Shown here in pieces: positions 14,227 to 61,740 of a DNA stretch of 64,000 nucleotides. The notes beneath the pieces are model-generated. The model had not been told where the DNA came from. It did no database searches and saw nothing but the letters and a program-made list of their open reading frames with translations. A program made the translations under genes and the position numbers. The stretch lies in the NCBI RefSeq assembly GCF_036884655.1, contig NC_088355.1, forward strand, positions 24,432,501 to 24,496,500, read 5' to 3'. The stretch is from Musa acuminata AAA Group (taxonomy: Eukaryota; Streptophyta; Magnoliopsida; Zingiberales; Musaceae). The first letter of the stretch is position 1; each line of letters starts with the position of its first letter.

Positions 14227-14262
14227 GGGGTATTTCTCATTTCGGATTTACACCCGAGAGAA

Positions 14263-15261
14263 ATGACTTTTCAAGAGGGCTGTTCGGTCTTTCGTCCACC
14301 GTTCTTTAACGGATTGGACTACACTTATTGGAAAACTCGAATGAGAGTTTTCTTAATTTCTCTAAATCTGGATTTATGGAATATCATTGAAAACGGTTTT
14401 CAACTTCCCTCCAAACCGATGAACGAATGGTCGGTTTTGGAGAAGAAGAATTTTTCTTTAAACGCAAAGGCTATGAATGCCTTATTTTGCGCATTGGACA
14501 AAAATGAGTTCAATCGGATTTCTACGTGTGAAACGGCTTTCGATATTTGGCGCACTCTTGAAATCACGCACGAGGGAACTAGTAGAGTCAAAGACTCGAA
14601 AGTTAATATTCTACTGCTTGATTTCGAGCTTTTTCATATGAAACCAAGCGAAACCGTTGTTGACATGTACACCCGTTTTACGGATGTCATCAATGGTTTA
14701 AAATCACTTGGTAAAAGCTTTTCGGATTTTGAACTCGTTAACAAAGTTTTGCGCTCACTTTCTAAAACTTGGGATTCAAAAGTAACTGCTATTCAAGAAT
14801 CGAAAAACTTGAACCATTTTCCACTTGAAGAACTAATTGGTTCATTGATCACATATGAAATGACGTGCAATGCACGTGAAGAACTTGAGAACCACCTTCC
14901 AAAGAACAGGAAGGATTTGGAACTCTAGACAAATGAATGCCACTTGAGCGATGACTCAAGTGATGAGGACAATGATGAACAAACCAACCTTCCAAAGAAC
15001 AGGAAGGATTTGGGACATAGAACATTTGAAAACCACTCGAGCATAAGCTCAAGTGATGGTGAACTTAAAATGAAACGAAAATTAAAAAGCAAAAAGAATG
15101 GAACTACTTGCTTTAAACGCAAGAAGAAGAACAAAAATTGGGATGAATCGAGCTCCTCCGAAGAAGAGAAAGTCAACAAAAGCAAGGCGGCAAACTACGC
15201 CTTAACAGCCTACAATGATGAGGTAATCGAAATCCCCCTAATTTACTTCGAAATTACATGA
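14263..15261 (+). pseudogene. gag-like frame of body 1, with one in-frame stop and no zinc knuckle
   Basis: 333 codons from ATG 14263 to the terminal stop, interrupted by TAG at 14926-14928 (the sister copy has TGG). The N-terminal ~215 residues are the copia gag core (YTYWKTRMRVFLISLNLDLW, LVNKVLRSL). The C-terminal part is acidic and serine-rich, with the LPKNRKDL module present twice. It ends in a Lys-rich stretch with a single Cys where family B has a CCHC knuckle. Nothing downstream encodes pol. Confidence 0.85.
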
Positions 15262-17253: not shown

Positions 17254-17341
17254 CTTGAATTCAGTTTGAATTCAAGGTTCTATCAATATGGCATATTGAT
17301 AGGGGGAGTTTGTTTAAACTCCGGGAGTTAAGTTTAACTCC
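17254..17341 (+). promoter_or_regulatory. cluster of four palindromes before the polypurine tract, body 1
   Basis: Consecutive inverted repeats: 17254-17276 (10-bp arms, 3-nt loop), 17280-17302 (11-bp arms, 1-nt loop), 17305-17322 (7-bp arms) and 17324-17341 (8-bp arms, 2-nt loop). The same cluster is at 22879-22966 and, inverted, at about 34464-34558. Confidence 0.85.
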
Positions 17342-17364
17342 GTCATCAAGTGGTTGTCATCATC

Positions 17365-17378
17365 AAAAAGGGGGAGAT
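17365..17378 (+). other. polypurine tract, body 1
   Basis: aaaaagggggagat lies directly against the TG of LTR2; plus-strand DNA primer site. Confidence 0.92.
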
Positions 17379-19897
17379 TGTTGAATCTCGTATTTTGATG
17401 ATGAAACTACTTGATATATGTTTATGATTTAATCTGCGTTTTGAGTGACGCAGGATGCTTCGATCAGGATGAGACAATTAAAGCAGGAAAATCATGTTGT
17501 GCCGAAGGAACATGTAAGAAGATTGGACGTCGGGTCGGTGGATCGGTCGACGTATCGACAGAAGGCTTCGGGCCGTGGACTCGGGCATCGGGCCAAGAAG
17601 AGAGGGTATTGTGCCAAGGATATCGGAGTTGCGGAGTCAACTGGACGATTGGGCAATAGGCTGCAGGAGAGGACGATGCGCCGAAGAATCGGATAAAGCG
17701 TCGAGGGACCAATGACATGCCGGACAACTTGGTTAATTGCTTAGGATTAATTGTCTCGATCGAAGTTTTGTTTTAATTGTGCAGGATTAACTATGATAAC
17801 GATGAAGACATAAAGCGAAACAAAGTGTCGGAGTAAGCGCGAAGGATTTGTTGCGAGTTCGAGAGTTCGACGGAAGTCCGAAGGTTCGTCGGGAATGCTA
17901 CCGGAACTAGCCGAGAATGAGTTGGGAGCTTGCCGAAGGGTTTTTCGGAAGCTCGCCGGAAGGTTCGTTGGAAGTTCGCGGAGCTCGCCGAGAAAGACCG
18001 GAGCTTGCCGAAGAAGCTCGTTAGAACGCGCTAAGATCAAATCGTGAAGTCTAGGAGCTTGCCGGGAGTCCGCAGAATGGTTTCCGAGAGTTCATCGGAA
18101 GACCGCCGGAAGTTTGCTGGAAGCTCGCCTGAAGAAGTCTTGACTTGCGGACTTTGTAATAGCTTAGAAAATGTCTTTAAATTCATAGTTAGCACGTTAA
18201 TTAGGGTTAGGATTAGGTGTTAATCCTATAACCCAAGTAGGGGCCAATTTGGCCCAAGTTCGGACTGGTTTGGGTCAAGTTTAGAGCCAAACCAAGTGAG
18301 CTGAAATAGTGAAAGAGGTGGCACCGCCAGGCAGGGAGGTAGCACCGCCCAGGCTATGTCTCCCAGCGAGACTAGGAGGTACAACCGCCCCAGCCAAGAG
18401 GTGTAACCGCCCTGAGCTCAGTCTTCGAGCTAGACTGGGCGGTGCAACCTCCCTGATAGAGAGGTGGCACCGCCTGAGCTCAGTCTTCGATCTAGATTGG
18501 GCGGTGCAACCTCCCTGACAGAGAGGTGGCACCGCCTGAGCTCAGTCTTCGAGCAAGACTGGGCGGTGCAACCTTCCTGACAGAGAGGTGGCACCGCCTG
18601 AGCTCGGTCTTCGAGCTTTGCCAGGCGGTGCAACCTCTCCAGTCAAGAGGTGCAACCGCCTGATCCCGAAATTCCGGGATTTGATCGTTTTGAGCTCCAA
18701 ATTTGAATTGGGTTGGGGCCTATAAATACCCCACCCATTCAGCACTGAAGGTATATAGATCCACACCGAATTCTTGATCTTTTCAGTGATTCTAAGAGCT
18801 CAAATTTGTGTAAAGTCCAAAAGTTCTCCTCTTTTATGTTCTTTAAGTCTTGAGCTGTAAAGAGAGGAGAGAAAGGATCTGTAAGGGTTGTCTCCTGAGC
18901 CCGTCAAAAGGAGAGAAACTATAAAAGGGCAGTTGGCCTTCGCCTATTGAAGGAAGGCCCCTAGTTGACGTCGGTGACCTCGCCGGTGGAGGAAGCCAAA
19001 AGTGGAGTAGGTCAAGACTGACCGAACCACTCTAAATCTCTGGTTTACGTTTATTTTGAGCACTTTATCATTACTGCAAACCTCTTACATAGCTACTGCT
19101 CTCTGCGCTTTTACGAACAAGTTTCTAAGTTCTAATCTTTCCGAATCTGGATTCAGACGTCAATAGGTGTTTTCGTACGATCTTTACATTGCAGCTTACA
19201 TTTACGTCTTGAATCTGTTTATAACTGCGAACTATCTTCTGCGCTTTTACGAACGAGTTTCCTTGCAGTTTACATTTACATTTTGTTTCTATTTATAACT
19301 GTAAACTGTCTTCTGCAATTTTACGAACGAGTTTCAACATTTAGACGTAAAACTGCATTTAGACTTAAATCGGTTTTCCTCGCACAATCATCAGATTTCA
19401 GTTTACGTTTACATCTTGATTTCAACTGCATACTGCCTTCTGCGAGTATACAAACGAGTTTCAAAGTTCAGACGTAAATCTGCGTTTAAGAAGTAAATCT
19501 GTGTTTAGACGTAAATCTGCTTTTTGCAGATTACTTTTTGAGCTGTACAATAGTAGCACATTGTCTTTATACTTCTGCTTAAACTGCGCTTAGACGCAAA
19601 CTGTGTTTAGACGCAAACTGCGCTTAGACGCAATCTACGCTTAGACGCAAACTGCGCTTAGACGTAATCTGCGCTTAGACGCAAACTGCGCTTAGACACA
19701 ATCTGAGTTTAGATGCAATCTGCATTTAGACGCAAACTGTGTTTAAACGTAAACTACACTTAATCATAAGTAATCTTAGAATCGGCTTTTGCATCAAAAT
19801 AGTTTTTATCGAACGAACGCAGCTTTCGTTTTTAATCGCTGAAAGATTTCCGCTGCACTAATTCACCCCCCCCCTCTTAGTGCTCTCGATCCTAACA
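17379..19897 (+). repeat. LTR2 of the family A array (shared central LTR)
   Basis: 2,519 bp. TATAAATA at 18721-18728; GGTGCAACCGCC-type cluster 18315-18662; 18-bp array with TTTAGACGCAAACTGCG variants at about 19467-19760. By eye closer to LTR3 than to LTR1. Confidence 0.92.
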
Positions 19898-19899
19898 AT

Positions 19900-19911
19900 T
19901 GGTATCGGAGC
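19900..19911 (+). other. primer binding site, body 2 (one mismatch)
   Basis: TGGTATCGGAGC: one A-to-G change from the consensus initiator tRNA-Met site. Confidence 0.88.
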
Positions 19912-19947
19912 GGGGTATTTCTCATTTCGGATTTACACCCGAGAGAA

Positions 19948-20958
19948 ATGGCTCTTCAAGAGGGCTTTTCGGTCTTTCGTCCACCGTTCTTTAACGGATT
20001 GGACTACACTTATTGGAAAACTCGAATGAGAGTTTTCTTGATTTCTCTAAATCTGGATTTATGGAATATCGTTGAAAACGATTTTCAACTTCCCTCTAAA
20101 CCGATGAACGAATGGTCGGACTTGGAGAAGAAGTATTTTTCTTTAAACGCAAAGGCTATGAATGCCTTATTTTGCGCTTTGGACAAAAATGAGTTCAATC
20201 GGGTTTCTTTGTGAGAAACGACTTTCGATATTTGGCGCACTCTTGAAATCACGCACGAGGGAACTAGTAGAGTCAAAGACTCGAAAGTTAATATTTTACT
20301 GCATGATTTCGAGCTTTTTCATATGAAACCAAGCGAAACCGTTGTTGACATGTACACCCGTTTTACGGATGTCGTCAATGGTTTAAAATCACTTGGTAAA
20401 AGCTTTTCAGATTTTGAACTCGTTAACAAAGTTTTGCGCTCACTTTCTAAAACTTGGGATTCAAAAGTAACTGCTATTCAAAAATCGAAAAACCTAAACA
20501 ACTTACCACTTGAAGAACTAATTGGTTCATTGATGACATATGAAATGGTGCACAATGCACATGATGAACATGTTGAACACAATCACCTTCCAAAGAACAG
20601 GAAGGATTTGGAACTCTGGACAAATGAATGCCACTTGAGCGATGACTCAAGTGATGAGGACAATGATGAACAAACCAACCTTCCAAAGAACAGGAAGGAT
20701 TTGGGACATAGAACATTTGAAGACCACTCGAGCATAAGCTCAAGTGATGGTGAACTTAAACTACAAATGAAACGAAAATTAAAAAGCAAAAAGAATGGAA
20801 CTACTTGCTTTAAACGCAAGAAGAAGAACAAAAATTGGGATGAATCGAGCTCCTCTGAAGATGAGAAAGTCAACAAAAGCGAGGCGACAAACTACGCCTT
20901 ACCAGCCTACGACATTGAGGTAATTAAAATGCCTTTGGTTTATTTTAAAATTACTTGA
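19948..20958 (+). pseudogene. gag-like frame of body 2, with one in-frame stop and no zinc knuckle
   Basis: 337 codons from ATG 19948, broken by TGA at 20212-20214, where body 1 has a Cys codon. The gag core is followed by a duplicated LPKNRKDL acidic module and a basic tail (KRKLKSKKN), as in body 1. The two copies are broken at different positions, so the lesions arose after they separated. The missing zinc knuckle is shared. Confidence 0.85.
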
Positions 20959-22989
20959 TGCTTTCATGATATATTTTCTTTTTTAGTTTAGAATTAATTT
21001 TCTTGAAAATTACATGTTTAAAAATAAAAATACAAAAAATTATGATCATGCTGATAATTTTGAAAATGATAATATTACATGATAAACAATAAAATGATTT
21101 TGATCATGGTTAAGAAGTAATAATGTGTATCATGTTTGATTAACATTGTTGAATGAAATCACGTTTGATTTAAAGTAATGCATAAAGATGTAATATTAAA
21201 TGGTTATTAACAATTTTATGCATGAGATTTTAAGTTATCCATGATCATGAGCTTGTTTGGTCTTCTTGATTTAATTTCAAGATCTATAGCAAAAATCATG
21301 TCTGAATATATGAAAGTGTTAATTTCATTTTCGGATTCACTTAACAATTGGTATCTTAACAATCAGATTCTCTCATACACTTATGAAAAATATTTTTCTA
21401 AAATGGATTTGATGAAATGATTCCTACTTATAAATTCCATCTTGAAATATGAATGATAGTGTTTTTACTTGCAAAGATTTGTTTCACATTCATATCTCCT
21501 ATGATTCATGTGCAGAAAAAGAATTTATAAATCATAATACAATGAGATTTCTTATGCAAAGTGCTTTTGTGATTCTTTGCTAAAGAGAATAATCATAATC
21601 ATGATCTTGATAATTATAACATGAAGCTCTTTATAAATCAAGATCGTTCATTATGCTCCCTACATTTATCAAAAAGGAGTTCTTCAAATGAAATGCAATT
21701 CAATGAAGTGTCATATTGATATCTTGAAACTTGGAATATTTTAAAATGTGATCTTGATAAGAATGTTTCAAGTTGCTCTTTGTACTTTATCTTTTCGAAT
21801 GAATCATGAGCCTTGATATCATATATTTCATAATACAAGATTTCTTTGCCTTATGTCTTGAACTTTCATGCTTATCTTAATTTGGCATATAAAGACTAAG
21901 GCATGCTTAGATGAAAAAGAATCTCTTAATAAAATGCTTTTCCCATCTGATCGAGATTAATGATTTCATGATATTTTGTGAATCTCGAAATTAATTTTAA
22001 TGACTTGATTATGAATTTCAAGTTAATGATTTGATTTGAATAAGTTTTATCTAAATCATAATCTTGATCTTGCAAAATTGAAGTCACAAATAATATCTTG
22101 TGGTATTCATGAATTGATACTCACAATACGAAAGCATTGATATTCATGACTTGAATTGGATTGAAACATTGTATGCTTAAATTAATCATTCTCCTATGTT
22201 TCAAAAATTCCTTAAATGCCTTATGTGATGATTGAAAACTAACTTGCTTTATGATGAATCATAAATCATGACTTGATCTATGATGTAAATGCCTTGAAAT
22301 GATTGAAATATTTAACATTTTTATGCTCTTCCCCCTACTTTCGTCTTGTTTTCAATGATAAAATAGGGAGAAGTTTTGATCATGCATGGTAGGATATAAT
22401 TTGACAAAATTGATACCATCATGATATGAAACATTTATGATGTGCAATTATGCATGCAATACTTGTGCTTTCTAATTATGATATGATGTATTGCATATGA
22501 TGTAAATCATGATTTAAAATGCTATGAGTGCCAAGTTACACATTTTGAGAAGAAATTGTTATATTAAAACATTAATGTAATTATGAATGGTGATATGATA
22601 TCATGCATGTAATACTTCAACTTATGATAATGATGCATGTAATGATAAAATATTCATGATGAAAAATTGTCTTGACATTCATAACTTGATTAGTCATCCC
22701 TTGTCATGATTTTGAAATCGTTGTAAAAGGAAAAAAGAACTACAAAACTGTATTCTCTCTTTCGTTTTGTTGATGACAAAGGGGGAGAAGTAGGTTGATA
22801 ACATGACATGTGATGCATAAGTTTATGCATATGTTCATGTTGACGTGTTGCAAGTATTTATGATGAATATTGCAATGACTTGAATTCAGTTTGAATTCAA
22901 GGTTCTATCAATATGGCATATTGATAGGGGGAGTTTGTTTAAACTCCGGGAGTTAAGTTTAACTCCGTCATCAAGTGGTTGTCATCATC
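20959..22989 (+). other. AT-rich non-coding interior of body 2
   Basis: No gene. The first ~120 bp align with body 1; beyond that the two interiors differ, and this one lacks the short dispersed words seen at 16490-17040. A PPT-like word gacaaagggggagaag is at about 22778-22793. The palindrome cluster lies at 22879-22966 and the polypurine tract at 22990-23003. Confidence 0.75.
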
Positions 22990-23003
22990 AAAAAGGGGGA
23001 GAT

Positions 23004-25540
23004 TGTTGAATCTCGTATTTTGATGATGAAACTACTTGATATATGTTTATGATTTAATCTGCGTTTTGAGTGACGCAGGATGCTTCGATCAGGATGAGAC
23101 AATTAAAGCAGGAAAATCATGTTGTGCCGAAGGAACATGTCAGAAGATTGGACGTCGGGTCGGTGGATCGGTCGACGTATCGATAGAAGGCTTCGGGCCG
23201 TGGACTCGGGCATCGGGCCAAGAAGAGCGGGTATTGTGCCAAGGATATCGGAGTTGGGAGTCAACTGGACGATTGGGCAATAGGCTGCAGGAGAGGACGA
23301 TGCGCCGAAGAATCGGACAAAGCGTCGAGGGACCAATGACATGCCGGACAACTTGGTTAATTGCTTAGGATTAATTGTCTCGATCGAAGTTTTGTTTTAA
23401 TTGTGCAGGATTAACTATGATAACGATGAAGATATAAAGCGAAACAAAGTGTCGGAGTCAAGCGCGAAGGATTTGTTGCAAGTTCGAGAGTTCGACGGAA
23501 GTCCGAAGGTTCGTCGGGAATGCTACCGGAACTAGCCGAGAATGAGTTGAGAGCTTGCCGAAGGGTTTTTCGGAAGCTCGCCGGAAGGTTCGTTGGAAGT
23601 TCGCGGAGCTCGCCGAGAAAGACCGGAGCTTGCCGAAGAAGCTCGTTAGAACGCGCTAAGATCAAATCGTGAAGTCTAGGAGCTTGCCGGGAGTCCGCAG
23701 AATGGTTTCCGAGAGTTCATCGGAAGACCGCCGGAAGTTTACCGGAAGCTCGCCAGAAGAAGTATTGACTTGCGGACTTTGTAATAGCTTAGAAAATGTC
23801 TTTAAATTCATAGTTAGCACATTAATTAGGGTTAGGATTAGGTGTTAATCCTATAACCCAAGTAGGGGCCAATTTGGCCCAAGTTCGGACTGGTTTGGGT
23901 CAAGTTTGGAGCCAAACCAAGTGAGCTGAAATAGTGAAAGAGGTGGCACCGCTAGGCAGGGAGGTAGCACCGCCCAGGCTATGTCTCCCAGCGAGACTGG
24001 GAGGTGCAACCGCCCCAGCCAAGAGGTGCAACCGCCCTGAGCTCAGTCTTCGAGCTAGACTGGGCGGTGCAACCTCCCTGATAGAGAGGTGGCACCGCCT
24101 GAGCTCAGTCTTCGATCTAGACTGGGCGGTGCAACCTCCCTGACAGAGAGGTGGCACCGCCTGAGCTCAGTCTTCAAGCAAGACTGGGCGGTGCAACCTC
24201 CCTGACAGAGAGGTGGCACCGCCTGAGCTCGGTCTTCGAGCTCTGCCAGGCGGTGCAACCTCTACAGTCAAGAGGTGCAACCGCCTGATCCCGAAATTCC
24301 GGGATTTGATCGTTTTGAGCTCCAAATTTGAATTGGGTTGGGGCCTATAAATACCCCACCCAATCAGCACTGAAGGTATATAGATCCACACCGAATTCTT
24401 GATCTTTTCAGTGATTCTAAGAGCTCAAATTTGTGTAAAGTCCAAAAGTTCTCCTCTTTTCTGTTCTTCAAGTCTTGAGCTGTAAAGAGAGGAGAGAAAG
24501 GATCTGTAAGGGTTGTCTCCTGAGCCCGTCAAAAGGAGAGAAACTGTAAAAGGGCAGTTGGCCTTCGCCTATGGAAGGAAGGCCCCTAGTTGACGTCGGT
24601 GACCTCGCCGGTGGAGGAAGCCAAAAGTGGAGTAGGTCAAGACTGACCGAACCACTCTAAATATCTGGTTTGCGTTTATTTTGAGCACTTTATCATTACT
24701 GCAAACCTCCTACATAGCTACTGCTCTCTGCGCTTTTACGAACAAGTTTCTAAGTTCTAATCTTTCTGAATCTGGATTCAGACGTCAATAGGTGTTTTCG
24801 TACGATCTTTACATTGCAGCTTACATTTACGTCTTGAATCTGTTTATAACTGCGAACTATCTTCTGCGCTTTTACGAACGAGTTTCCTTGCAGTTTACAT
24901 TTACATTTTGATTCTATTTATAACTGCAAACTGTCTTCTGCAATTTTACGAACGAGTTTCAACATTTAGACGTAAAACTGCATTTAGACGTAAATCGGCT
25001 TTCCTCGCACAATCATCATATTTCAGTTTACGTTTACATCTTGATTTCAACTGCATACTGCCTTCTGTGAGTATACAAACGAGTTTCAAAGTTCAGACGT
25101 AAATCTGTGTTTAAGACGTAAATCTGCGTTTAGACGTAAATCTGCGTTTAGACGTAAATCTGCGTTTAGACGTAAATCTGCTTTTTGCAGATTACTTTTT
25201 GAGCTATACAATAGCAGCACATTGTCTTTATACTTCTGCTTAAACTGCGCTTAGATGCAAACTGTGTTTAGACGCAAACTGCGCTTAGACGCAATCTGCG
25301 CTTAGACGCAAACTGCGCTTGGACGCAATCTGAGTTTAGACGCAATCTGCATTTAGACGCAAACTACGTTTAGACACTAACTGTGTTTAAACATAAACTG
25401 CACTTAATCATAAGTAATCTTAGAATTGGCTTTTGCATCAAAATAATTTTTATCGAACGAACGCAGCTTTCGTTTTTAATCGCTGAAAGATTTTCGCTGC
25501 ACTAATTCACCCCCCCCTCTTAGTGCTCTCGATCCTAACA
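23004..25540 (+). repeat. LTR3 of the family A array
   Basis: 2,537 bp. TATAAATA at 24346-24353; GGTGCAACCGCC-type cluster 23940-24290; 18-bp array about 25095-25410, with about two more units than LTR2. It ends GATCCTAACA. The next base begins an inverted family B LTR fragment, with no target duplication. Confidence 0.92.
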
Positions 25541-50930: not shown

Positions 50931-52198
50931 ATCTCCCACTTGACCTAAAGCCAATCACCTATGTGTCTGATCCCCATCAGACCCCTGTGACGCTCAAAGA
51001 CAAAATGAGACAACGGCTTTGTCAGTGGATCTGCAATGTTATCTTCGGATGGAACTCTTTCCACTGCTACATCTCCTCAGGTTACGATCTCTCTTATAAG
51101 CTGGAACCTCCTCAGAACACTTCTGATAAGACCCGAGTTCCCTTATTTGAGTAATCACCCCATAGTTGTCGCAATATAAGGAAGTCGACTTGTCGCTATC
51201 TGTATCGACTCCCAAATCTGTGATGAACTTCTTCACCCAGACTCCCTCCTTTGCTGCATCCGATGCAGCAATGTACTCCGCCTCTGTGGTCGAGTCAGAA
51301 GTGGTATCTTGCTTGGAACTCTTCCAGCACACTGCTCCTCCATTCAAGGTGTACACATACCCTGAATTTGACTTGCTATCATCGACATCAGACTGAAAAC
51401 TTGAGTCAGTGTAGCCTTCAACCTTAAGGCTATTACCTCCATATACTAGTAAAAGATCCTTAGTCCTTCTCAAGTACTTAAGGATACACTTTACTGCTTT
51501 CCAGTGCTCCAAGCCTGGATCCGCCTGATACCTGCTCGTGACACTCAGAGCATGCGCTATATCAGGCCTAGTACATAGCATGGCATACATGATATACCAT
51601 ATTGCTGAGGTATAAGGTATCATATCCATGTTCGCCCTTTCTTAGAATTTTCAATGTCAAACATTTTGACAATGGTTTCTATGTACCTGGACTGGGACAA
51701 GCCAAGCATCCTCTTGGATCTATCTCTATAGATTCTAATCCCCAAGATATAGGATGCTTCTCCTAAGTCCTTTATGGAGAAGTGTCTAGATAACCAAGTC
51801 TTTACAGTGGATAGCATTCCTACGTCATTCCCAATGATGAGGATGTCATCCATATATAACACCAAAAAGGTGATAGCGCTCCCACTTACCTTTCTGTATG
51901 CACAAGGCTCATCTTCGTTCTTAACGAAGTCATAAGATCTGATTGCCTCATCAAATCTTATGTTCCAACTTCGGGAAGCTTGCTTTAGTCCATAAATGGA
52001 TCTAAGCAACCTACACACCTTATCTGGGCAGTTCTTGGACACGAATCCCTCAGGTTGCATCATATACACCTCCTCCTCCAGGTTCCCGTTGAGGAATGCG
52101 GTTTTCACATCCATCTGCCAGATCTCATAATCATAGTGTGCTGCAATAGCCAATAGAATTCTGATGGATTTTAGCATTGCTACGGGTGAGAAAGTTTC
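50931..52198 (-). pseudogene. C4 RT and RNase H part
   Basis: Continues the C4 polyprotein left of B: RT with YMDDILI (C2 has YVDD), then RNase H with TEAEYIA. It carries the same frame-breaking deletion after IENSKKG and the same short deletion after SYQK that C2 shows. The frame therefore fails at two places, at positions identical to those in C2. The terminal stop is at 50945-50947, followed by the polypurine tract complement. Confidence 0.9.
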
Positions 52199-53297
52199 TG
52201 TTGAATCTCGGATTTTGATGATGAAGTCAATTGTCATTTGTTATCTAATCTATGTGTTGAGATAAGTGTGCAGGATTAACTACGATGAGAGTAAGACAAG
52301 CAGCAGGTGTTGCGCCGGAGTCAAGATCATGATCACGTTGGGAGTTCGAGAGTTCGACGGAAGTTTGGACGGTCGTCGGAGGTTCAGCGAGAACAGATAC
52401 GAGAAGTCCAGAAGCTTGCCAAGCGAAGCTCGTCGGAACTCGCCAGGTGGATCGTCGCAAAGTCTAGGAGTATGCCGGATGTCCGCAGAAGGATCACCGA
52501 GGGTTTATCGGATGATCGACGGAAGTTGGCCGGAAACTCGCCGGAAGAAGCGATTGACGCATCGGAGCAAGCTGCAGAAGTTGTCTTAGAGTTAATCGTA
52601 GTTAGCATGATGATTAAGCATGAAAATGGGAGGTGATCCCATTAGCTTAATCTTGGGGCAATTGGGCCCCTGAAAAGATTCAAATTGGGCCGAATGGAGT
52701 GAACCATTCGGACCCTGATTGCACCAGGAGGTGCAACCGCCCCAGCCAGGAGGTGCAACCGCCTGGGCTGTGAGGTTGGGAGGTGCTACCGCCCCAGCCA
52801 GGAGGTGCAACCGCCAGGGCTGCGAGGCTGGGAGGTGCAACCGCCCCAGCCAAGAGGTGCAACCGCCCAGAGCTCAGTCTTCGAGCTAGACTGGGCGGTG
52901 CAACCTCCTCTGTCAAGAGGTTGCACCGCCAGAGCTCAAGTTCCGAGCTCTGCCAGGCGATGCAACCACTGAGCTCAGTCTTCGAGCTCAGGTAGAGAGG
53001 TGCATCAGCCTGAGCTCAGTCTCGAGCTCTGCCAGGTGATGCAATCACCGAGCTCAGTCTTCGAGCTCTGGCAGAGAGGTGCATCAGCCTGAGCTCAGTT
53101 TCGAGCTCTGGCAGGTGATGCAACCACCGAGCTCAGATTTCGAGCTCTGCTAGGTGATGCAACCACCAAGCTCAGTCTTCGAGCTCTGCCAGGCGGTGCC
53201 ACCTCTCCAGTCAAGAGGTGCAACCGCCTGATCCCAGAATTCTAGGATTTGATCGATTTGATCGTTTTGAGCTCGAATTTTGAATTGGGTTGGGGCC

Positions 53298-53305
53298 TAT
53301 AAATA
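53298..53305 (+). promoter_or_regulatory. TATA box of the element B 5' LTR
   Basis: TATAAATA in ggggcctataaatacccc; the same context occurs in LTR1-3 and at 60591-60598. Confidence 0.82.
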
Positions 53306-54026
53306 CCCCACCCATTCAGCACTGAAAAGACACAGACCTACACCGAAATCTTGATCTTTTCTGTGATTCTAAGAGCTCAAAAGTGTTGTAAAGCCTTTAA
53401 GTCTCCTCCTTCTGTTCTTCAAGTTTTCAGTTGTAAAGTGAGGAGAGAAAGGTCTGTAAAGGTTGTCTCCTAAGCCTGTCAAAAGGAGAGAAGTTGTAAA
53501 AGGGCAGTTTGGCCTTCGCCTATTGAAGGAAGGCCCCTAGTTGACGTCGGCAACCTCGTCGGTGGAGGAAGCCAAAAGTGGAGTAGGTCAAGGCTGACCG
53601 AACATCTCTAAATCTCTGGTTTGCGTTTATTTTCGAGCACTTTATCATTACTGCAAACCTCCTTCATCACTACTGCTCTCTGCGCTTTCACGAACAAGTT
53701 CTAAGTGCTGTTCTTCCGAATCTACATTCAGACGTAAATTTGTATTTCCATACATTACAGTTTACGTTTACGTTTGATTCTGCAGAACTATCTTCCGTGC
53801 TTTTACGAACGAGCTTCTTTGCAGTTTACACTTACATTTTGATCCTATTGATAACTGCAAACTGTCCTCTACAATTTTACGAACGAGTTTCAACATTTAG
53901 ACGTAAAACTGCATTCAGACGTAAATCGGCTTTCCTCGCTCAATCATCAGATCTCAGTTCACGTTTACGTCTTGATTTTAACTGCATACTGCCTTCTGCG
54001 AGTATACAAACAAGTTTCAAAGTTTA

Positions 54027-54300
54027 GACGTAAATCTGCGTCTAGACGTAAAACTGCGTTTAGACGTAAATCTGCGTTTAGACGTAAATCTGAGTTTAAG
54101 ACGTAAATCTGAGTTTAGACGTAAATCTGCGTTTAGATGTAAAACTGCGTTTAGACGTAAATCTGCGTTTAGACGTAAATCTGCGTTTAGACGTAAATCT
54201 GCGTTTAGACGTAAAACTGCGTTTAGACGTAAATCTGAGTTTAGACGTAAACTGCGCTTAGACGCAAAACTGCGCTTAGACGCAATCTGCGCTTAGACGC
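54027..54300 (+). repeat. 18-bp tandem array in the element B 5' LTR
   Basis: Units tttagacgtaaatctgcg with aaactg and gagttt variants. The matching array in the 3' LTR (about 61319-61595) has the same unit order apart from a few substitutions. Confidence 0.92.
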
Positions 54301-54445
54301 AAACTGCACTTAGATACAAACTGAGAATTTGCTTTTGCATCATAATAGTTTTTGAACGAACGCAGCTTTTGGTTTTTAATCGCTGTAAGATTTCCGCTGC
54401 ACTAATTCACCCCCCCCCCCTCTTAGTGCTCTCGATCCTAACAAT

Positions 54446-54457
54446 TGGTATCAGAGC
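54446..54457 (+). other. primer binding site of element B
   Basis: TGGTATCAGAGC two bases after the LTR. Confidence 0.95.
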
Positions 54458-54493
54458 AAGGTTAACTCTCTAAAGGATTAAAACCCAAGAGAG

Positions 54494-56071
54494 ATGGCAT
54501 ACGCCGGAAACCAAGAGGGGCATTCGATTACACGTCCACCCATGTTCAGTGGAACGGACTACACTTACTGGAAGACCCGAATGAGGATCTTTCTTATTTC
54601 TATGGATTTTGAACTGTGGAACCTTGTTGAAAACGGATTTTCAAAGTCTTCTCTTCCAATGATCGATTGGAATGAGTTGGAAAAGAAGGCTTTCGCTCTT
54701 AATGCAAAGGCTATGAATGCCTTATTTTGCGCACTTGATAAAAACGAGTTTAATCGTGTTTCAACTTGCGAAACTGCTTTTGATATTTGGCACACACTTG
54801 AAGTGACCCACGAGGGCACAAGTAGAGTGAAAGAGTCAAAAATCAATCTATTGCTGCATTCTTTTGAACTTTTCCGAATGAAACCGAGTGAAACCATTGG
54901 CGACATGTTTACCCGTTTCACGGATGTCGTCAACGGTCTAAAAGGACTCGGAAAAAGTTTTTCGGATTTTGAACTCGTAAATAAAATACTAAGATCCCTT
55001 CCTAAAAGTTGGGATCCTAAAGTCACTGCCATTCAAGAGGCAAAGGATCTGCGCAACTTCCCTCTTGAAGAACTAATCGGGTCATTAATGACCTACGAAA
55101 TGACTTGCAAAGCTCATGAAGAGCAAGAAGACATCCTTCCAAAGAACAGGAAGGATATGGCACTTAAAACTTCTGAATGCCACTTGAGAGAAAACTCAAG
55201 TGATGAGGATTGTGATGATGACTTGGCACTTTTGACAAGAAAGTTTAAGAAATTCTTCAACAGAAACAAGTTTAAAAACGATGTGAAAATTAAACTTGAA
55301 CCCAAGAAGGACCAAGTGATCTGCTACGAATGTAAAAAGCCGGGACACTACAAGAATGATTGTCCCCAAGTCAAAAGAAGAACATCAAAGAAGAAGGCTC
55401 TTCAAGCAACATGGGATGACGCAAGCGCATCTGAAGAAGAAGAGTCCAACACCGAGCAAGTTGCTCATTATGCCTTTATGGCCATCGAAGAGGAGGTAAC
55501 GAATTTATTAGATGCTGATTTATCTTTCGATGAATTATTAAATGCCTTCCATGATTTATTTGATGAATGCAAAGTTATAAATAGAAAATACAAGTTGCTA
55601 AAAAAGGTACATGATAATCTTACTTGTGAGTTTGATAAGTTAAAAGTCGAACACCATGATAGTTTAAATTCATGTATCAAATGTCATGATTTAGAATCTA
55701 TGCAAAAAGAAAACTTGCTACTTAAGGACACCTTGAAGAAATTCGAGGTTGGTAGCAAGTCATTAAACATGATCCTTACAAACAAGGGTCATACTTCCAA
55801 AAGAAGTGGGATTGGATTTGTGAGGAGTCCTCACCGAAATCCAACTACCTTTGTAAAAGGTCCCATCTTACATGCTAGAAGCAAATGCAACTTTTGTTGC
55901 AAGTTTGGTCACAAGACACATTATTGTCCATTCAGGAAATTGAGTCCAAACAAATTAATTTGGGTTCCTAAAGGAACCATGATAAACTCTATGCAACATG
56001 ATAGAAAATGTAGATCTATTTATGAGGCACCCAAAAGCAAATGGGTTCCTAAAGATCATCCCTTCCTATAA
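54494..56071 (+). CDS. Gag polyprotein of element B, intact, two zinc knuckles
   Basis: 525 codons, uninterrupted. The gag core is residues 20-215 (YTYWKTRMRIFLISMDFELW; LVNKILRSLPKSWD). One acidic LPKNRKDM module follows at about 216-243. The first CCHC knuckle is C277-C280-H285-C290 (CYECKKPGHYKNDC). A Glu-rich stretch and a helical, probably coiled-coil region occupy 345-425. A second CCHC is C465-C468-H473-C478 (CNFCCKFGHKTHYC). The two-finger arrangement ending in WVPK is what precedes protease in Sirevirus gag-pol, but here the frame stops right after. It should form the particle and bind RNA; enzymes must come from another element. Confidence 0.93.
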   Translation: MAYAGNQEGHSITRPPMFSGTDYTYWKTRMRIFLISMDFELWNLVENGFSKSSLPMIDWNELEKKAFALNAKAMNALFCALDKNEFNRVSTCETAFDIWHTLEVTHEGTSRVKESKINLLLHSFELFRMKPSETIGDMFTRFTDVVNGLKGLGKSFSDFELVNKILRSLPKSWDPKVTAIQEAKDLRNFPLEELIGSLMTYEMTCKAHEEQEDILPKNRKDMALKTSECHLRENSSDEDCDDDLALLTRKFKKFFNRNKFKNDVKIKLEPKKDQVICYECKKPGHYKNDCPQVKRRTSKKKALQATWDDASASEEEESNTEQVAHYAFMAIEEEVTNLLDADLSFDELLNAFHDLFDECKVINRKYKLLKKVHDNLTCEFDKLKVEHHDSLNSCIKCHDLESMQKENLLLKDTLKKFEVGSKSLNMILTNKGHTSKRSGIGFVRSPHRNPTTFVKGPILHARSKCNFCCKFGHKTHYCPFRKLSPNKLIWVPKGTMINSMQHDRKCRSIYEAPKSKWVPKDHPFL

Positions 56072-56842
56072 AAATTAAAAGTCTAGGTCGGAGCAAGAAA
56101 TAATATTCTGCTCCTTGACTCTCAATGGTCATAAACCAAGAATCAAAAAAGAACTCGCAACGTTTAAGTAACAAGTGGAAGTTGTGAAATCACAAATACG
56201 ATACAACCTTATTAGAAACATATGATATCCAAATTCACATACCCCCCTGATCTTCAAAACCCGTTCATCTACGAATTAATTCTTGTAGAAACTAAATATG
56301 TCATGATCTTAAAAGGGATACCAAACAAACATACGTATGCACGTTAAAAGATCTATCTTGATCGTACAAAGAGCTTCTTCCTTAAATAAAAACTCATACG
56401 AAATCATGTAACAAACATTAATTGCTCTGAAACTCTCCTCAAGGCAAAGGCTCCCTAATCAAATCATCTTAGGTGCTCACTGGCTGCAGGCGGTGGCACC
56501 TCTCCAGCTGGCGGTGGCACCTCCAACTATCACGGGTTGCCAAACGTTGCACCGCTCCAGCCAGAGGTGCAACCGCCAGCAGCTCTGCCCTTTAAACCCA
56601 CACTAGGGCCGGCTAAGGAACCGACCCCAACTCACCCCCATTTCCTCCTCTACTCTTCCAAGTCTCCTCCATTCCCATTTCACTCCTCTAAGCCTTCCAA
56701 ATACCTCCCATTTCGGAACAAAACATCAAGAATCCCTCCTTCTCTTGAAGATTTCACAAAGGTACTCTCTAAGAAGCTCTTAAATTCTGTTTTGTTCTTC
56801 ATTTACTTTAGCTTATCATCATCCCTCTAAACAGCAGTAGTT
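56072..56842 (+). other. spacer between gag and ORF2 of element B
   Basis: No coding. 56072-56460 is A/T-rich. 56485-56580 contains ggtggcacc/ggtgcaaccgcc words like the LTR U3. After that comes a CT-rich stretch (56620-56750) resembling a plant 5' UTR. A possible 5' UTR intron runs from caaag/gtactctc (about 56760) to an acceptor near 56833. Suggests an internal promoter for ORF2; inference only. Confidence 0.55.
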
Positions 56843-57964
56843 ATGGGATCTAGAAGATCCTCAAGGGACAAGGGAAAGAGGAGATTAGTAGAAGAGTTTG
56901 ATTTCACTCTTTTCGATTCAAAAAACCATGCTGAAAAATTTCTCTCCTTCGAACTAAGAAGCATCAATAAGGGAAAATACGTAGATCTAAACGAACTAAG
57001 AGATGTAGAGACTATCCAATGGTTTGCAAACCTAAATCTACTTCCAATTTTGCAGATCAACGAACCCATTTATCCTAGACTAGTTAGATTGTTTTACAAC
57101 AACATGCAAATAGATGATGAAGAAAGGATGTCAACCTATCTCTTAGGACAACACATCTCAATCACTGATAGATTCATTTGTGATATGATAGGTATTCCCA
57201 TGAAAAGCATAGGACTTTACTTTAAAGGATCATGGGATGAAAAAACCATTGAAACATCCTACGTTGAAGCCTTAGGAACAATCCTTGCCAATCCTAACAT
57301 AGAATCTGTTCCTAAAAGTTGTGAACATCTATTGCCCTTTAACACTAAGATACTTCATCATATCATGACTAGTATAATTCTTCCTAAACAATACCATCAT
57401 GATGAAGTGAGTCAATTGGAATTAGGAATTATGTACCTAATCATGAAAGGACGTGATATTTGTCTTGGCTATCTGATCCAACAAAACATGTTAGAACTAT
57501 CTACGAAAGATATGATGCTCCCATATGGTGGAATAATTACTAGAATAATGAAAGCTTACGACATTCAAATACCACTAGAAGAAGAAGTAATGAAAGCAGA
57601 TAGATTCAGCGTAATAAACAAAAATTTACTTCACCGACTAAGATGTCACTATAGAAACGGTAACTGGGTTAGAATGCCTAGAAGAACTGATCCCCCTCAG
57701 CCTGAACCTGAACCTGAACCAGAGCCGGAAACCCCAGTCTTTAGGAGTACCCAATCTCCTCCGATCTGTCCCTTTGAGGAAACGCATCCGGTTGAGCAAA
57801 CTCACACATCATCCATCGAAGATATCGGGATTCGGATGGACCGATTTGAACAAAGACAAGAACGGCTTGAACTTCGACAAGATCAAATCCTAACCGAGCT
57901 GCAGCAAATCCATCGACAATTTGACTCTTTATTTAGGCACTTTAATCTTCCACCTCATGAATAA
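56843..57964 (+). CDS. ORF2 of element B: 'putative plant transposon protein' type, no pol function
   Basis: 373 codons, uninterrupted. Basic N-terminus (RRSSRDKGKRR, possible nuclear signal). The core at about residues 75-245 (YPRLVRLFYNNM, HISITDRFICDMIGIP, DEVSQLELGIMYLIMKGRDI, LPYGGIITRIM) resembles a plant-specific family I know as 'putative plant transposon protein', whose biochemical role is unknown. Then come a PEPEPEPEPE hinge (287-296) and an amphipathic, probably coiled-coil tail (RMDRFEQRQERLELRQDQIL). No transmembrane segment, so not env-like; no DDE or RT motif seen. It sits where pol should be, between gag and the RNase H relic. Family assignment is from memory of its motifs. 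Confidence 0.8.
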   Translation: MGSRRSSRDKGKRRLVEEFDFTLFDSKNHAEKFLSFELRSINKGKYVDLNELRDVETIQWFANLNLLPILQINEPIYPRLVRLFYNNMQIDDEERMSTYLLGQHISITDRFICDMIGIPMKSIGLYFKGSWDEKTIETSYVEALGTILANPNIESVPKSCEHLLPFNTKILHHIMTSIILPKQYHHDEVSQLELGIMYLIMKGRDICLGYLIQQNMLELSTKDMMLPYGGIITRIMKAYDIQIPLEEEVMKADRFSVINKNLLHRLRCHYRNGNWVRMPRRTDPPQPEPEPEPEPETPVFRSTQSPPICPFEETHPVEQTHTSSIEDIGIRMDRFEQRQERLELRQDQILTELQQIHRQFDSLFRHFNLPPHE

Positions 57965-58319
57965 GCTTGTATGAACATCTGCTATTTTTGATATGACATG
58001 TTGTAAACTCCTTATGTTATTCATGAAGGACTTTGTCTGTATGGTTACCTGATATGCTGTACATATGTTACCCTGATATGGTTATCTTTGTTTGTGTAAG
58101 CATATTTGCAAACATCTCTTGTTGTTTACCTCGGTTTTTGCACTGAAACTAAAGAGGTTTAAAAGCCTATGCCTTGAAAAATATGAAGCAACATACCAAT
58201 GTAAGTTGATAAGTCAGCAGTATGACATTGATATGGTTGCTATTACTAATATGATTGCTATCATGCCATGTATCAAGATATCAAACAAAAATTTGCATCG
58301 TACGAGCTGATATCTTACC

Positions 58320-58470
58320 ATGTGATGCAATGCTACACTTGCTGAAATAAAAATCTTGCTATGCAATATGATACAATGCTACACTTGCTGAAATAAAAAT
58401 CTTGCTATGCAATATGATACAATGCTACACTTGCTGAAATAAATATCTTGCTATGCAATATGATAGAATG
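58320..58470 (+). repeat. 46-bp tandem repeat, about three copies
   Basis: Units beginning acaatgctacacttgctgaa and ending in tgcaatatgat, the last copy decayed. Non-coding interior of element B. Confidence 0.88.
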
Positions 58471-58510
58471 CTGCACTTGAAATAATTGTGTTACTACATC
58501 AAAAGCTTAA

Positions 58511-58708
58511 CACTCAAGAATCAAACACATTGATATTAGACATCACTTTATACGAGATCATGTCTCTAATCATGATGTAACCATAGAGTTTATTGATACC
58601 AAACATCAACTGGCTGATATCTTCACAAAACCCCTATGTGAAGAACAATTCGATTACATAAGAAAAGAATTAGGAATGTTGATTTATCTGAATACTTTAA
58701 CTAGTTAA
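58511..58708 (+). pseudogene. RNase H C-terminal relic of element B
   Basis: 65 codons ending in a natural TAA: RIKHIDIRHHFIRDHV and then the hallmark copia tail QLADIFTKPLCEEQF, IRKELGM. There is no start codon or upstream RNase H, RT or integrase. It is the last remnant of a deleted pol and marks the 3' border of the replaced segment. Confidence 0.92.
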
Positions 58709-59476
58709 AATTATTTTTCGGATGTTATTACTATTACATGCCTTGACAACGCTTGATCAAATAACATGTTGCAAATTATGTGACAAATATTTTTAACCAA
58801 ATGCATGTAAGAAGTTCATTTTTCGGTTTGTATGCTAAAAATGGGATGTTCCTGTACACTCTTATGAAAACTCTTTGAAAAATGACTTTCCTCCGTCAAG
58901 CAAAAACAATAAAGAGATATATGTGTCATGACTTCCTTTATGTACTTGATAATGCTATCATGCTTTTTGTTGATGACAAAGGGGGAGAAACATATGAATT
59001 GATAAACACTATGTCATAGCTGAACTGCCATAATCATGTCTATGTCATAGTTGCAAATACTTGAGTGATGCTATAAACAATGTTATGCCATCCTTGCATC
59101 ACCAAGAGATATGTGAACATGTGCTATAGTTTGCATCATATCTTGATTTGATATTCTATAGAAAATGCAAACTTGCTAGAAAATCTCAAATGTGTGCATC
59201 ATGTAAAAAATCCTTCGTAGCTTTATATTATTACATGATGAATTGTTACAAACACTATCATACAAACTTGATGATGTATGTCATGCTTTGACATCATTCT
59301 TGAAGAGATACATCATGATGGGCATCATGATGAGAGCATTGATAAGTTTAACTGATCTAACTTATCAATACGTCACTTGAATTCTTTGGTCTTGAATTCA
59401 AGGTTGACTTATCTCAACTATGGCATATAGATAGGGGGAGTTAAGGACAACTCCTTTATCAATTGATTGTCATCGT
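58709..59476 (+). other. 3' non-coding region of element B
   Basis: AT-rich. A PPT-like word gatgacaaagggggagaa lies at about 58973-58990. The region before the polypurine tract has only partial versions of the family A palindromes (cttgaattcaag near 59390, atggcatatagatag near 59420). Confidence 0.7.
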
Positions 59477-59491
59477 AAAAAAGGGGGAGAT
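59477..59491 (+). other. polypurine tract of element B
   Basis: aaaaaagggggagat next to the 3' LTR. Confidence 0.93.
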
Positions 59492-61735
59492 TGTTGAATC
59501 TCGGATTTTGATGATGAAGTCAATTGTCATTTGTTATCTAATCTATGTGTTGAGATAAGTGTGCAGGATTAACTACGATGAGAGTAAGACAAGCAGCAGG
59601 TGTTGCGCCGGAGTCAAGATCATGATCACGTTGGGAGTTCGAGAGTTCGACGGAAGTTCGGACGGTCGTCGGAGGTTCAGCGAGAACAGATCCGAGAAGT
59701 CCAGAAGCTTGCCAAGCGAAGCTCGTCGGAACTCGCCAGGTGGATCGTCGCAAAGTCTAGGAGTATGCCGGATGTCCGCAGAAGGATCACCGAGGGTTTA
59801 TCGGATGATCGACGGAAGTTGGCCGGAAACTCGCCGGAAGAAGCGATTGACGCATCGGAGCAAGCTGCAGAAGTTGTCTTAGAGTTAATCGTAGTTAGCA
59901 TGATGATTAAGCATGAAAATGGGAGGTGATCCCATTAGCTTAATCTTGGGGCAATTGGGCCCCTGAAAAGATTCAAATTGGGCCGAATGGAGTGAACCAT
60001 TCGGACCCTGATTGCACCAGGAGGTGCAACCGCCCCAGCCAGGAGGTGCAACCGCCTGGGCTGTGAGGTTGGGAGGTGCTACCGCCCCAGCCAGGAGGTG
60101 CAACCGCCAGGGCTGCGAGGCTGGGAGGTGCAACCGCCCCAGCCAAGAGGTGCAACCGCCCAGAGCTCAGTCTTCGAGCTAGACTGGGCGGTGCAACCTC
60201 CTCTGTCAAGAGGTTGCACCGCCAGAGCTCAAGTTCCGAGCTCTGCCAGGCGATGCAACCACCGAGCTCAGTCTTCGAGCTCAGGCAGAGAGGTGCATCA
60301 GCCTGAGCTCAGTCTCGAGCTCTGCCAGGTGATGCAATCACCGAGCTCAGTCTTCGAGCTCTGGCAGAGAGGTGCATCAGCCTGAGCTCAGTTTCGAGCT
60401 CTGGCAGGTGATGCAACCACCGAGCTCAGATTTCGAGCTCTGCCAGGTGATGCAACCACCAAGCTCAGTCTTCGAGCTTTGCCAGGCGGTGCCACCTCTC
60501 CAGTCAAGAGGTGCAACCGCCTGATCCCAGAATTCTGGGATTTGATCGATTTGATCGTTTTGAGCTCGAATTTTGAATTGGGTTGGGGCCTATAAATACC
60601 CCACCCATTCAGCACTGAAAAGACACAGACCTACACCGAAATCTTGATCTTTTCTGTGATTCTAAGAGCTCAAAAGTGTTGTAAAGCCTTTAAGTCTCCT
60701 CCTTCTGTTCTTCAAGTTTTCAGTTGTAAAGTGAGGAGAGAAAGGTCTGTAAAGGTTGTCTCCTAAGCCTGTCAAAAGGAGAGAAGTTGTAAAAGGGCAG
60801 TTTGGCCTTCGCCTATTGAAGGAAGGCCCCTAGTTGACGTCGGCAACCTCGTCGGTGGAGGAAGCCAAAAGTGGAGTAGGTCAAGGCTGACCGAACCACT
60901 CTAAATCTCTGGTTTGCGTTTATTTTCGAGCACTTTATCATTACTGCAAACCTCCTTCATCACTACTGCTCTCTGCGCTTTCACGAACAAGTTCTAAGTG
61001 CTGTTCTTCCGAATCTGCATTCAGACGTAAATTCGTATTTTCATACATTACAGTTTACGTTTACGTTTGATTCTGCAGAACTATCTTCCGTGCTTTTACG
61101 AACGAGCTTCTTTGCAGTTTACACTTACATTTTGATCCTATTGATAACTGCAAACTGTCCTCTACAATTTTACGAACGAGTTTCAACATTTAGACGTAAA
61201 ACTGCATTCAGACGTAAATCGGCTTTCCTCGCTCAATCATCAGATCTCAGTTCACGTTTACGTCTTGATTTTAACTGCATACTGCCTTCTGCGAGTATAC
61301 AAACAAGTTTCAAAGTTTAGACGTAAATCTGCGTCTAGACGTAAAACTGCGTTTAGACGTAAATCTGCGTTTAGACGTAAATCTGAGTTTAAGACGTAAA
61401 TCTGAGTTTAGACGTAAATCTGCGTTTAGACGTAAAACTGCGTTTAGACGTAAATCTGCGTTTAGACGTAAATCTGCGTTTAGACGTAAATCTGCGTTTA
61501 GACGTAAAACTGTGTTTAGACGTAAATCTGAGTTTAGACGTAAACTGCGCTTAGACGCAAAACTGCGCTTAGACGCAATCTGTGCTTAGACGCAAACTGC
61601 ACTTAGATACAAACTGAGAATTTGCTTTTGCATCATAATAGTTTTTGAACGAACGCAGCTTTTGGTTTTTAATCGCTGTAAGATTTCCGCTGCACTAATT
61701 CACCCCCCCCCCTCTTAGTGCTCTCGATCCTAACA
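59492..61735 (+). repeat. 3' LTR of element B
   Basis: 2,244 bp. TATAAATA 60591-60598; GGTGCAACCGCC-type cluster 60020-60522; 18-bp array 61319-61595. Confidence 0.95.
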
Positions 61736-61740
61736 GTTTC

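What the first reader, a model, noticed from the sequence alone, without database searches (positions are those of the whole stretch)
52199..61735. Sirevirus-like element whose pol is replaced by a plant-specific ORF
Element B is young (near-identical 2.24-kb LTRs, exact gtttc duplication). It has an open gag and an open 373-codon ORF of the 'putative plant transposon protein' type exactly where protease-integrase-RT should be. Both frames are undamaged although every pol in the window is broken, which suggests selection on, or very recent amplification of, a gag+ORF2 unit. ORF2 could help packaging, nuclear entry or parasitism of an autonomous Sirevirus. The combination is new to me.
Basis: partly seen in the sequence, partly recalled or inferred. 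Interest (0 to 1): 0.88.

Follow-up and report, generated by a model that had tools for sequence, protein, structure and literature searches.

The report
Pol-less retrotransposon with gag and ORF2
In a banana-like plant genome, a numerous family of mobile elements carries a conserved extra gene where its copying enzymes should be, and is probably copied by near-identical sister elements that kept those enzymes.

Summary
Element B (52199-61735) has 99.3% identical LTRs, a GTTTC duplication, Sirevirus motifs, an open gag, an open 373-codon PF20167 ORF2 and no pol except pol's last 65 codons, downstream of ORF2. It is a family: the gag-ORF2 junction is full length in 40 of 40 scored matches (a capped list).

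Three results change the reading. (1) Siblings with matching gag, LTRs and 3' end carry pol instead of ORF2; none of the 21 loci examined has both. (2) ORF2 is not foreign: in a related family it lies behind pol (11 of 12 loci), the position of the Sirevirus envelope-like gene; two Citrus gene models have the same order. (3) Another gag+ORF2 family on other contigs (two loci read) has ORF2 88% identical; between the families ORF2 dN/dS is 0.17-0.20, close to gag's.

Best explanation: a semi-autonomous Sirevirus that keeps gag and the lineage's third gene and borrows pol in trans. Trans-mobilisation and ORF2 function are inferred. No membrane span was found, so 'envelope' is positional only. 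Closest known: wheat Cereba/Quinta. A new variant of a known kind.

The parts
52194..52198 (.). target-site duplication GTTTC, 5' side
   Evidence: sequence printed
52199..54443 (+). 5' LTR
   Evidence: 99.287% identical to 59492-61735 over 2245 columns
52730..53228 (+). repeat boxes of type GGTGCAACCGCC in the 5' LTR (8 matches to an ad hoc pattern), upstream of a TATAAATA at 53298
   Evidence: compared with the Sirevirus repeated motif of PMC2829016 (passages)
54446..54457 (+). primer-binding site TGGTATCAGAGC (initiator tRNA-Met type; the tRNA assignment is recalled)
   Evidence: sequence printed
54494..56071 (+). gag, 525 aa, open
   Evidence: PF14223 4.4e-33, zf-CCHC 3.1e-05
56072..56439 (+). 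segment behind gag without detectable relation to pol or to the pol-ORF2 linker of the three-gene family
   Evidence: z -0.2 and -0.3
56440..56842 (+). promoter-like leader of ORF2: repeat boxes at 56513 and 56566, CCTTTAAACCC at 56589
   Evidence: homologous to the pol-ORF2 linker of two three-gene loci tested, z 16.6 and 11.0, 0 of 200 shuffles each; motifs
56843..57964 (+). ORF2, 373 aa, open; third gene of the Sirevirus lineage, here in pol's slot
   Evidence: PF20167 2.6e-15; position behind pol in relatives; dN/dS
57035..57562 (+). PF20167 domain, residues 65-240 of ORF2
57815..57940 (+). C-terminal helix of ORF2, residues 325-366, possible coiled coil
   Evidence: AlphaFold2 model of low overall confidence (mean pLDDT 41.8); block means 69-80 for residues 331-370
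58320..58479 (+). 46-bp tandem repeat behind ORF2, fewer units in at least one other copy
58511..58708 (+). remnant of the pol C-terminus (RNase H end)
   Evidence: 96-97% DNA identity to pol-type siblings; sequence
58980..58987 (+). upstream polypurine octamer AGGGGGAG; another at 59433-59440
59482..59489 (+). terminal polypurine octamer AGGGGGAG, starting 10 bases before the 3' LTR
   Evidence: rule from PMC2829016 (passages)
59492..61735 (+). 3' LTR
61736..61740 (.). target-site duplication GTTTC, 3' side
   Evidence: sequence printed

Best explanation
Element B is one copy of a numerous, semi-autonomous Sirevirus-like (SIRE/Maximus, Ty1/copia) family. It encodes Gag and the lineage's own third gene, which relatives carry behind pol in the envelope-like position. 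Pol is gone: an ORF2 cassette with a promoter-like leader sits in pol's slot and only the RNase H end of pol is left. Proposed cycle: the LTR transcript makes Gag; ORF2 is made from an internal promoter or a spliced message; the RNA is packaged together with RNA of gag-pol siblings that share LTRs, primer site, polypurine tract and gag; their reverse transcriptase and integrase copy it in trans. ORF2 is kept because its product benefits the element that carries it, most likely as a basic, coiled-coil, non-membrane accessory protein acting on Gag particles or on nuclear entry. Shown: architecture, many copies, siblings with near-identical shared parts, block-wise mosaics, constraint on ORF2. 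Inferred: co-packaging, trans-mobilisation, expression, the function of ORF2.
For: Junction full length in 40 of 40 scored matches; 56 distinct ORF2 copies from two capped lists. Of the 20 fetched loci, 13 have gag and full-length ORF2, one a truncated ORF2 segment, five have pol, one neither; none has both. pol-type siblings share gag (96-98%), the pol end and 3' UTR. LTR halves do not separate the two types: 6 label changes, shuffled mean 6.0. LTR-pair divergences overlap. Block-wise gag mosaics and an LTR exchange in L014. Third-gene origin: pol upstream of ORF2 in 11 of 12 loci, junction full length in 40 of 40, five gag-to-ORF2 spacings of 3549-3552 bp, homologous leader, Citrus gene models. 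Constraint.
Against: No RNA, protein or transposition data. The LTR tree has no well-supported inner branch (0 of 18 starred), so it fails to separate the types rather than proving mixing; L011, an ORF2-type fragment, was counted with the pol group there. Gag within the ORF2-type copies shows no detectable constraint (33 N, 11 S, omega-like 1.17, p 0.74), although between families it does (0.125-0.163). Sister-family loci were top protein matches, which favours conserved copies. Genome lists are capped at the best matches, so rare three-gene copies of this family could have been missed.
Confidence: 0.75

Rival explanations
1. Split genome: gag-pol and gag-ORF2 elements are interdependent halves of a former three-gene Sirevirus, each needing the other's product, as in a multipartite virus.
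For: Within this family no pol place lies on the same strand within 15 kb of an ORF2 place (0 of 40, capped lists); none of 21 loci has both genes; both types are young and share LTRs and gag; internal lengths are similar, 5048 against about 5430-5480 bases.
Against: Nothing shows that gag-pol siblings need ORF2: the passages read say many Sireviruses, such as most in maize, lack the envelope-like gene (PMC3414828). A one-way dependence explains the data as well.
Confidence: 0.15
2. ORF2 is a passenger: the family is an ordinary pol-less gag element, and ORF2 is open only because the copies are recent.
For: Singletons within the family look neutral (20 N, 11 S, 0.79, p 0.56); LTR-pair divergence is low.
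Against: dN/dS 0.17-0.20 between two gag+ORF2 families with dS 0.25-0.32, p 1e-17 to 5e-13; saturated pS 0.76-0.81 but pN 0.29 against the three-gene family. Part of this could reflect selection in earlier three-gene ancestors.
Confidence: 0.07
3. Simple internal deletion: element B is a gag-pol-ORF2 element that lost pol in one step.
For: Gag, the ORF2 leader and ORF2 keep their order and the leader is homologous to the pol-ORF2 linker.
Against: A pol end lies downstream of ORF2 and is 96-97% identical to the siblings' pol end; the sister family has a shorter pol end there. At least one recombination or template switch is needed besides a deletion.
Confidence: 0.03

Closest known systems
RLG_Quinta with its autonomous partner RLG_Cereba in einkorn wheat (PMC11302176; passages seen)
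   Same: Encodes GAG plus a domain of unknown function and no RT or INT; proposed to be cross-mobilised by an autonomous relative and to supply GAG.
   Different: Ty3/gypsy centromeric elements with strongly diverged GAG and a DUF of untraced origin; here a Ty1/copia Sirevirus, partner nearly identical outside the swapped segment, extra gene traced to the lineage's own third gene.
RLG_Sabrina and RLG_WHAM with RLG_Wilma in wheat (PMC9744471; passages seen)
   Same: Pol-less elements, some encoding GAG-protease, some with unrelated coding segments in place of GAG-protease; co-evolve with an autonomous family.
   Different: Sabrina variants replaced GAG-protease itself; minimal sequence similarity to the partner.
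Sireviruses with an envelope-like gene (PMC2829016, PMC3414828; passages seen)
   Same: Terminal octamer AGGGGGAG 10 bases before the 3' LTR, multiple octamers, repeat boxes in the LTR and upstream of the third gene, third gene behind pol in relatives.
   Different: Element B lacks pol and its third gene lies between gag and the pol remnant; no membrane span was found in ORF2 by hydropathy.
PF20167 ORF of the sunflower Athila 14 element (PMC11728184; passages and section 2.5 seen)
   Same: Additional 3' ORF with PF20167 similarity in an LTR retrotransposon; there predicted nuclear.
   Different: Ty3/gypsy Athila element that also has gag and pol.
TR-GAG elements (search listing only; definition recalled)
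   Same: LTRs with gag and no pol.
   Different: A second, constrained gene is present here.

Membership tests
Sirevirus (SIRE/Maximus) | Octamer AGGGGGAG 10 bp upstream of the 3' LTR and further copies in the linker | tested here: met
   59482, 59433 and 58980; LTR starts at 59492
Sirevirus (SIRE/Maximus) | Palindromic repeat boxes in the LTR upstream of the TATA box and upstream of the ENV-like gene | tested here: met
   Eight boxes in each LTR, two upstream of ORF2, by an ad hoc pattern
Sirevirus (SIRE/Maximus) | Those boxes define CpG islands | tested here: not met
   CpG observed/expected 0.46 in the LTR array and 0.43 upstream of ORF2 in element B; 0.96 in the three-gene locus L035. Not every Sirevirus has predicted islands (passages)
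Sirevirus (SIRE/Maximus) | Placement by RT phylogeny | not tested
   Element B has no RT; a sibling's pol has RVT_2 and integrase domains but no RT tree was built
Sirevirus envelope-like gene | Located downstream of pol | tested here: not met
   Not so in element B; met in a related family: pol upstream of ORF2 in 11 of 12 loci
Sirevirus envelope-like gene | Transmembrane domain | tested here: not met
   Highest 19-residue Kyte-Doolittle mean 1.25; hydropathy only, no trained predictor
Sirevirus envelope-like gene | Coiled-coil domain | tested here: inconclusive
   C-terminal helix 325-366 in a low-confidence model; 11 of 16 a/d positions hydrophobic
Semi-autonomous partner of an autonomous family (Quinta/Cereba type) | Intact gag without RT and INT | tested here: met
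Semi-autonomous partner of an autonomous family (Quinta/Cereba type) | Shared LTR and priming motifs with an autonomous family in the same genome | tested here: met
Semi-autonomous partner of an autonomous family (Quinta/Cereba type) | Mobilised by the partner's enzymes | not testable with these tools
   needs particle RNA or transposition data
TR-GAG | gag as the only coding region (recalled) | tested here: not met
   ORF2 is open and constrained

The most novel reading that the evidence does not exclude
A bipartite LTR retrotransposon: the genes of an ancestral gag-pol-ORF2 Sirevirus are divided over two elements of similar length, gag-pol and gag-ORF2, that share LTRs and gag, are packaged together, recombine, and depend on each other, so that selection maintains a split mobile genome.
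Probability: 0.2. Interest if true: 0.88.

Novelty: new variant of a known kind. Interest (0 to 1): 0.7.

Why it matters
What the envelope-like third gene of plant Sireviruses does is unsettled; PMC3414828 calls its role highly controversial (passages). Here that gene is found apart from pol, beside gag, and evolves between two such families under constraint close to gag's. If the reading is right, its product helps its carrier at a step that needs Gag and RNA but not the element's own enzymes. ORF2-bearing and ORF2-less siblings with matching LTRs and gag in one genome make natural comparisons of packaging, nuclear transport and insertion possible.

Tried and rejected
Pol deletion alone: rejected because a pol end lies downstream of ORF2. 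Foreign plant ORF: rejected by its place behind pol in relatives. An early guess that the chromosome sets are the A and B genomes of M. acuminata and M. balbisiana was dropped: a gene model of M. acuminata var. zebrina (P0011) holds matching gag and ORF2 pieces, and the assembly is unnamed.

Led nowhere: structure prediction of ORF2 (mean pLDDT 41.8), so no fold search was run; scan of viral contigs (167 pattern stretches, none confirmed); Pfam on six pieces of the element (none for five, one hit below its cut-off); the region upstream of the ORF2 cassette in L031; a second tree, on the pol end and 3' UTR, was built but its display failed and I did not repeat it. A search with the gag-ORF2 junction of L043 did not complete, so the pol-less state of that sister family rests on two loci. 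Prior-art searches. I saw no pol-less Sirevirus with an envelope-like gene in their listings, but the library holds open-licence papers only and I read passages of eight papers, none whole.

Biases and dropped rows: the three-gene and sister families were found by protein searches that score only the best matches (112 of 10383 and 111 of 10613 candidates), which favours open, conserved copies. Element-B loci were chosen by gag DNA similarity, which makes open gag likely. Stop counts for searches were made by eye. One search used the 12 intact ORF2 copies; one search repeats it with all 13 of full length; L020 (frame change) was left out of both. In one search the window and L020 gag were left out because of their length. 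In one search the fit with omega fixed at 1 also fixed the kappas, so I do not use its likelihood.
Full report
What is there. The window is G000:C29:24432501-24496500 of an unnamed assembly of 1.53 Gb in 1060 contigs. Element B is a complete LTR retrotransposon: LTRs of 2245 and 2244 bp, 99.3% identical, flanked by GTTTC, with a primer site beside the 5' LTR and three AGGGGGAG octamers, the last starting 10 bases before the 3' LTR, which PMC2829016 gives as a Sirevirus hallmark (passages). It encodes gag and ORF2. There is no pol except 65 codons of its C-terminus at 58511-58705, behind ORF2.

It is a family. A 1701-bp query across the gag-ORF2 junction gave 40 scored matches (5351 candidates); 40 of 40 start at query base 1-4 and end at base 1701, 96-100% identical. 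ORF2 alone gave 40 scored matches (3331 candidates), listed at 99-100%. Together the two lists hold 56 distinct ORF2 copies. Of 20 loci fetched by gag similarity, 13 have gag and full-length ORF2, L011 has gag and the segment before ORF2 but is truncated, L009, L013, L017, L022 and L025 have pol, and L027 has neither; a pol place 10.5 kb downstream of L027's gag suggests a pol-type copy split by an insertion. With the window, ORF2 is open in 12 of 14 full-length copies and gag in 20 of 21. Of 40 gag places, 19 have a listed ORF2 and 7 a listed pol at the fixed offset; the rest are not in the capped lists.

The pol-bearing siblings. pol gave 40 scored matches (2823 candidates), listed at 99-100%. 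In five fetched loci pol is 99.3-100% identical to the L017 copy over the part present; that copy has RVT_2 and integrase domains. Gag and pol share a frame and are separated by one stop; 2 of the 5 have no further stop in pol, 2 have one more, and one is cut short. gag (96-98%), LTR segments (90-99%), pol end (96-97%) and 3' UTR (92-99%) match element B. The sequences part about 30 bases behind the gag stop and rejoin inside the RNase H end. A tree of the gag-proximal LTR half needs 6 label changes, shuffled mean 6.0 (331 of 500 shuffles as low), but none of its 18 inner branches is well supported, L012 is a long branch and L011 was labelled with the pol group. LTR-pair divergence is 0.0024-0.0124 in 12 ORF2-type copies including the window and 0.0040-0.0141 in five pol-type; four loci had no second LTR in the stretch. 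At a recalled rate of 1.3e-8 the window copy would be about 0.26 My old. Gag differences come in blocks: window against L021 has 16 of 30 in one 150-base block. L014 has the common gag (97.7%) and ORF2 (98.6%) but LTRs only 79-82% similar. Template switching in shared particles fits; gene conversion would look alike. In capped lists, 0 of 40 pol places lie on the same strand within 15 kb of an ORF2 place; one lies 10 kb away on the other strand.

Where ORF2 comes from. ORF2 of the P0005 family (53% identical) gave 112 scored matches (10383 candidates), 86 without internal stops by my count. In 11 of 12 loci read, pol (77-84% identical per piece) lies upstream of ORF2; in the three inspected further, octamers and an LTR start follow ORF2. 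A 1900-bp query over that pol-ORF2 junction was full length in 40 of 40 scored matches. From 39 typed gag places of the 72%-identical gag P0012 and those 40 junctions, five pairs lie 3549-3552 bp apart, gag end to ORF2 start, room for one pol. So ORF2 is the third gene of a gag-pol-ORF2 Sirevirus. Two Citrus sinensis gene models have the order gag, RVT_2, PF20167, with PF20167 below Pfam's cut-off in both (35.8 and 41.1 of 45 bits). The 400 bases before ORF2 are homologous to the linker of both three-gene loci tested (z 16.6 and 11.0, 0 of 200 shuffles each); the segment behind ORF2 is not clearly so (z 2.3 and 1.3) and 56072-56440 is not. The leader has repeat boxes like those of the LTR and a TATA-like motif. 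PMC2829016 reports such boxes upstream of ENV and takes them as support for an internal promoter (passages). The CpG enrichment reported with them is not seen in element B (0.43-0.46) but is in L035 (0.96).

Age and selection. A third ORF2 type, P0002 (88% identical), gave 111 scored matches (10613 candidates), 94 without internal stops by my count, none on the nine contigs (C5, 7, 19, 20, 21, 25, 26, 27, 29) that hold 38 of 40 gag places of the window's family. Both loci read, L043 and L044, have gag directly upstream and no pol, with a shorter pol end behind ORF2. The different pol ends suggest that the window's family later took its 3' part from the local gag-pol sibling (inference). Between the two families ORF2 has dN/dS 0.17-0.20 (four comparisons, p 8e-18 to 5e-13), and the gag C-terminal part 0.125-0.163 (three comparisons). 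Within the window's family, shared ORF2 variants are 6 N to 10 S (omega-like 0.26, p 0.01) and singletons 20 N to 11 S (0.79, p 0.56); gag of 12 ORF2-type copies shows 33 N to 11 S (1.17, p 0.74), no sign of constraint, while gag of six pol-type copies shows 20 N to 25 S (0.35, p 0.0005). Against the P0005 family, synonymous differences are saturated (pS 0.76-0.81) while pN is 0.29. Within 12 P0005-type loci, chosen as top matches, ORF2 shows 36 N to 51 S (0.26).

How it most likely works. Gag is supplied in cis; reverse transcriptase and integrase come from gag-pol siblings. ORF2 has a basic N-terminus (7 K/R in 16 residues), the PF20167 domain, a proline-rich stretch and a long C-terminal helix. 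The highest 19-residue hydropathy mean is 1.25, so no membrane span is predicted. The sunflower PF20167 protein was predicted nuclear (PMC11728184 section 2.5). I therefore favour a particle-bound or nuclear accessory protein over an envelope. Co-packaging, expression and function are inferences.

Comparison. The nearest published case I saw is wheat Cereba/Quinta (passages), then Sabrina/WHAM (passages). Element B works like Quinta, but it is a copia Sirevirus, its partner is nearly identical outside the swapped segment, and its extra gene has a traceable origin. SIRE/Maximus elements are abundant in Musa (PMC2956553, PMC4059648; passages); those passages mention no gag-ORF2 form.

Noticed in passing
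window 11767-25540: Two related elements in LTR-internal-LTR-internal-LTR order (internal parts 14213-17377 and 19898-23002) carry a gag-like frame 75% identical to element B's or less, and neither pol nor ORF2 was found there: a gag-only form of the same LTR group.
   Followed up: partly
L009, L013, L017, L022, L025: In the gag-pol siblings gag and pol are in one frame separated by a single stop codon, so pol may need stop-codon readthrough; the ORF2-type copies compared have a different stop there.
   Followed up: partly
G000 contigs: ORF2 families are confined to chromosome sets: the window's family to nine contigs with few exceptions, the P0005 and P0002 types almost wholly to other contigs, useful for telling subgenomes apart.
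   Followed up: partly
L041, L042 (C15:26473498, C26:29597394); third place C4:26731367 with one TAA: A P0004-type ORF2 is open at two places on different chromosome sets whose 4-kb stretches align end to end at 95%, beside decayed LTR and polypurine sequence; pN/pS 0.45, p 0.027. A possible host-retained copy.
   Followed up: partly
L014: gag and ORF2 of the common type inside LTRs only 79-82% similar to the rest: an LTR exchange.
   Followed up: no
L031: The ORF2 cassette with its leader is joined upstream to sequence that is neither gag nor pol.
   Followed up: partly
protein P0043: A Sirevirus-type gag is filed under Klebsiella pneumoniae on a 2.4-kb contig, probably plant DNA in that assembly.
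   Followed up: no
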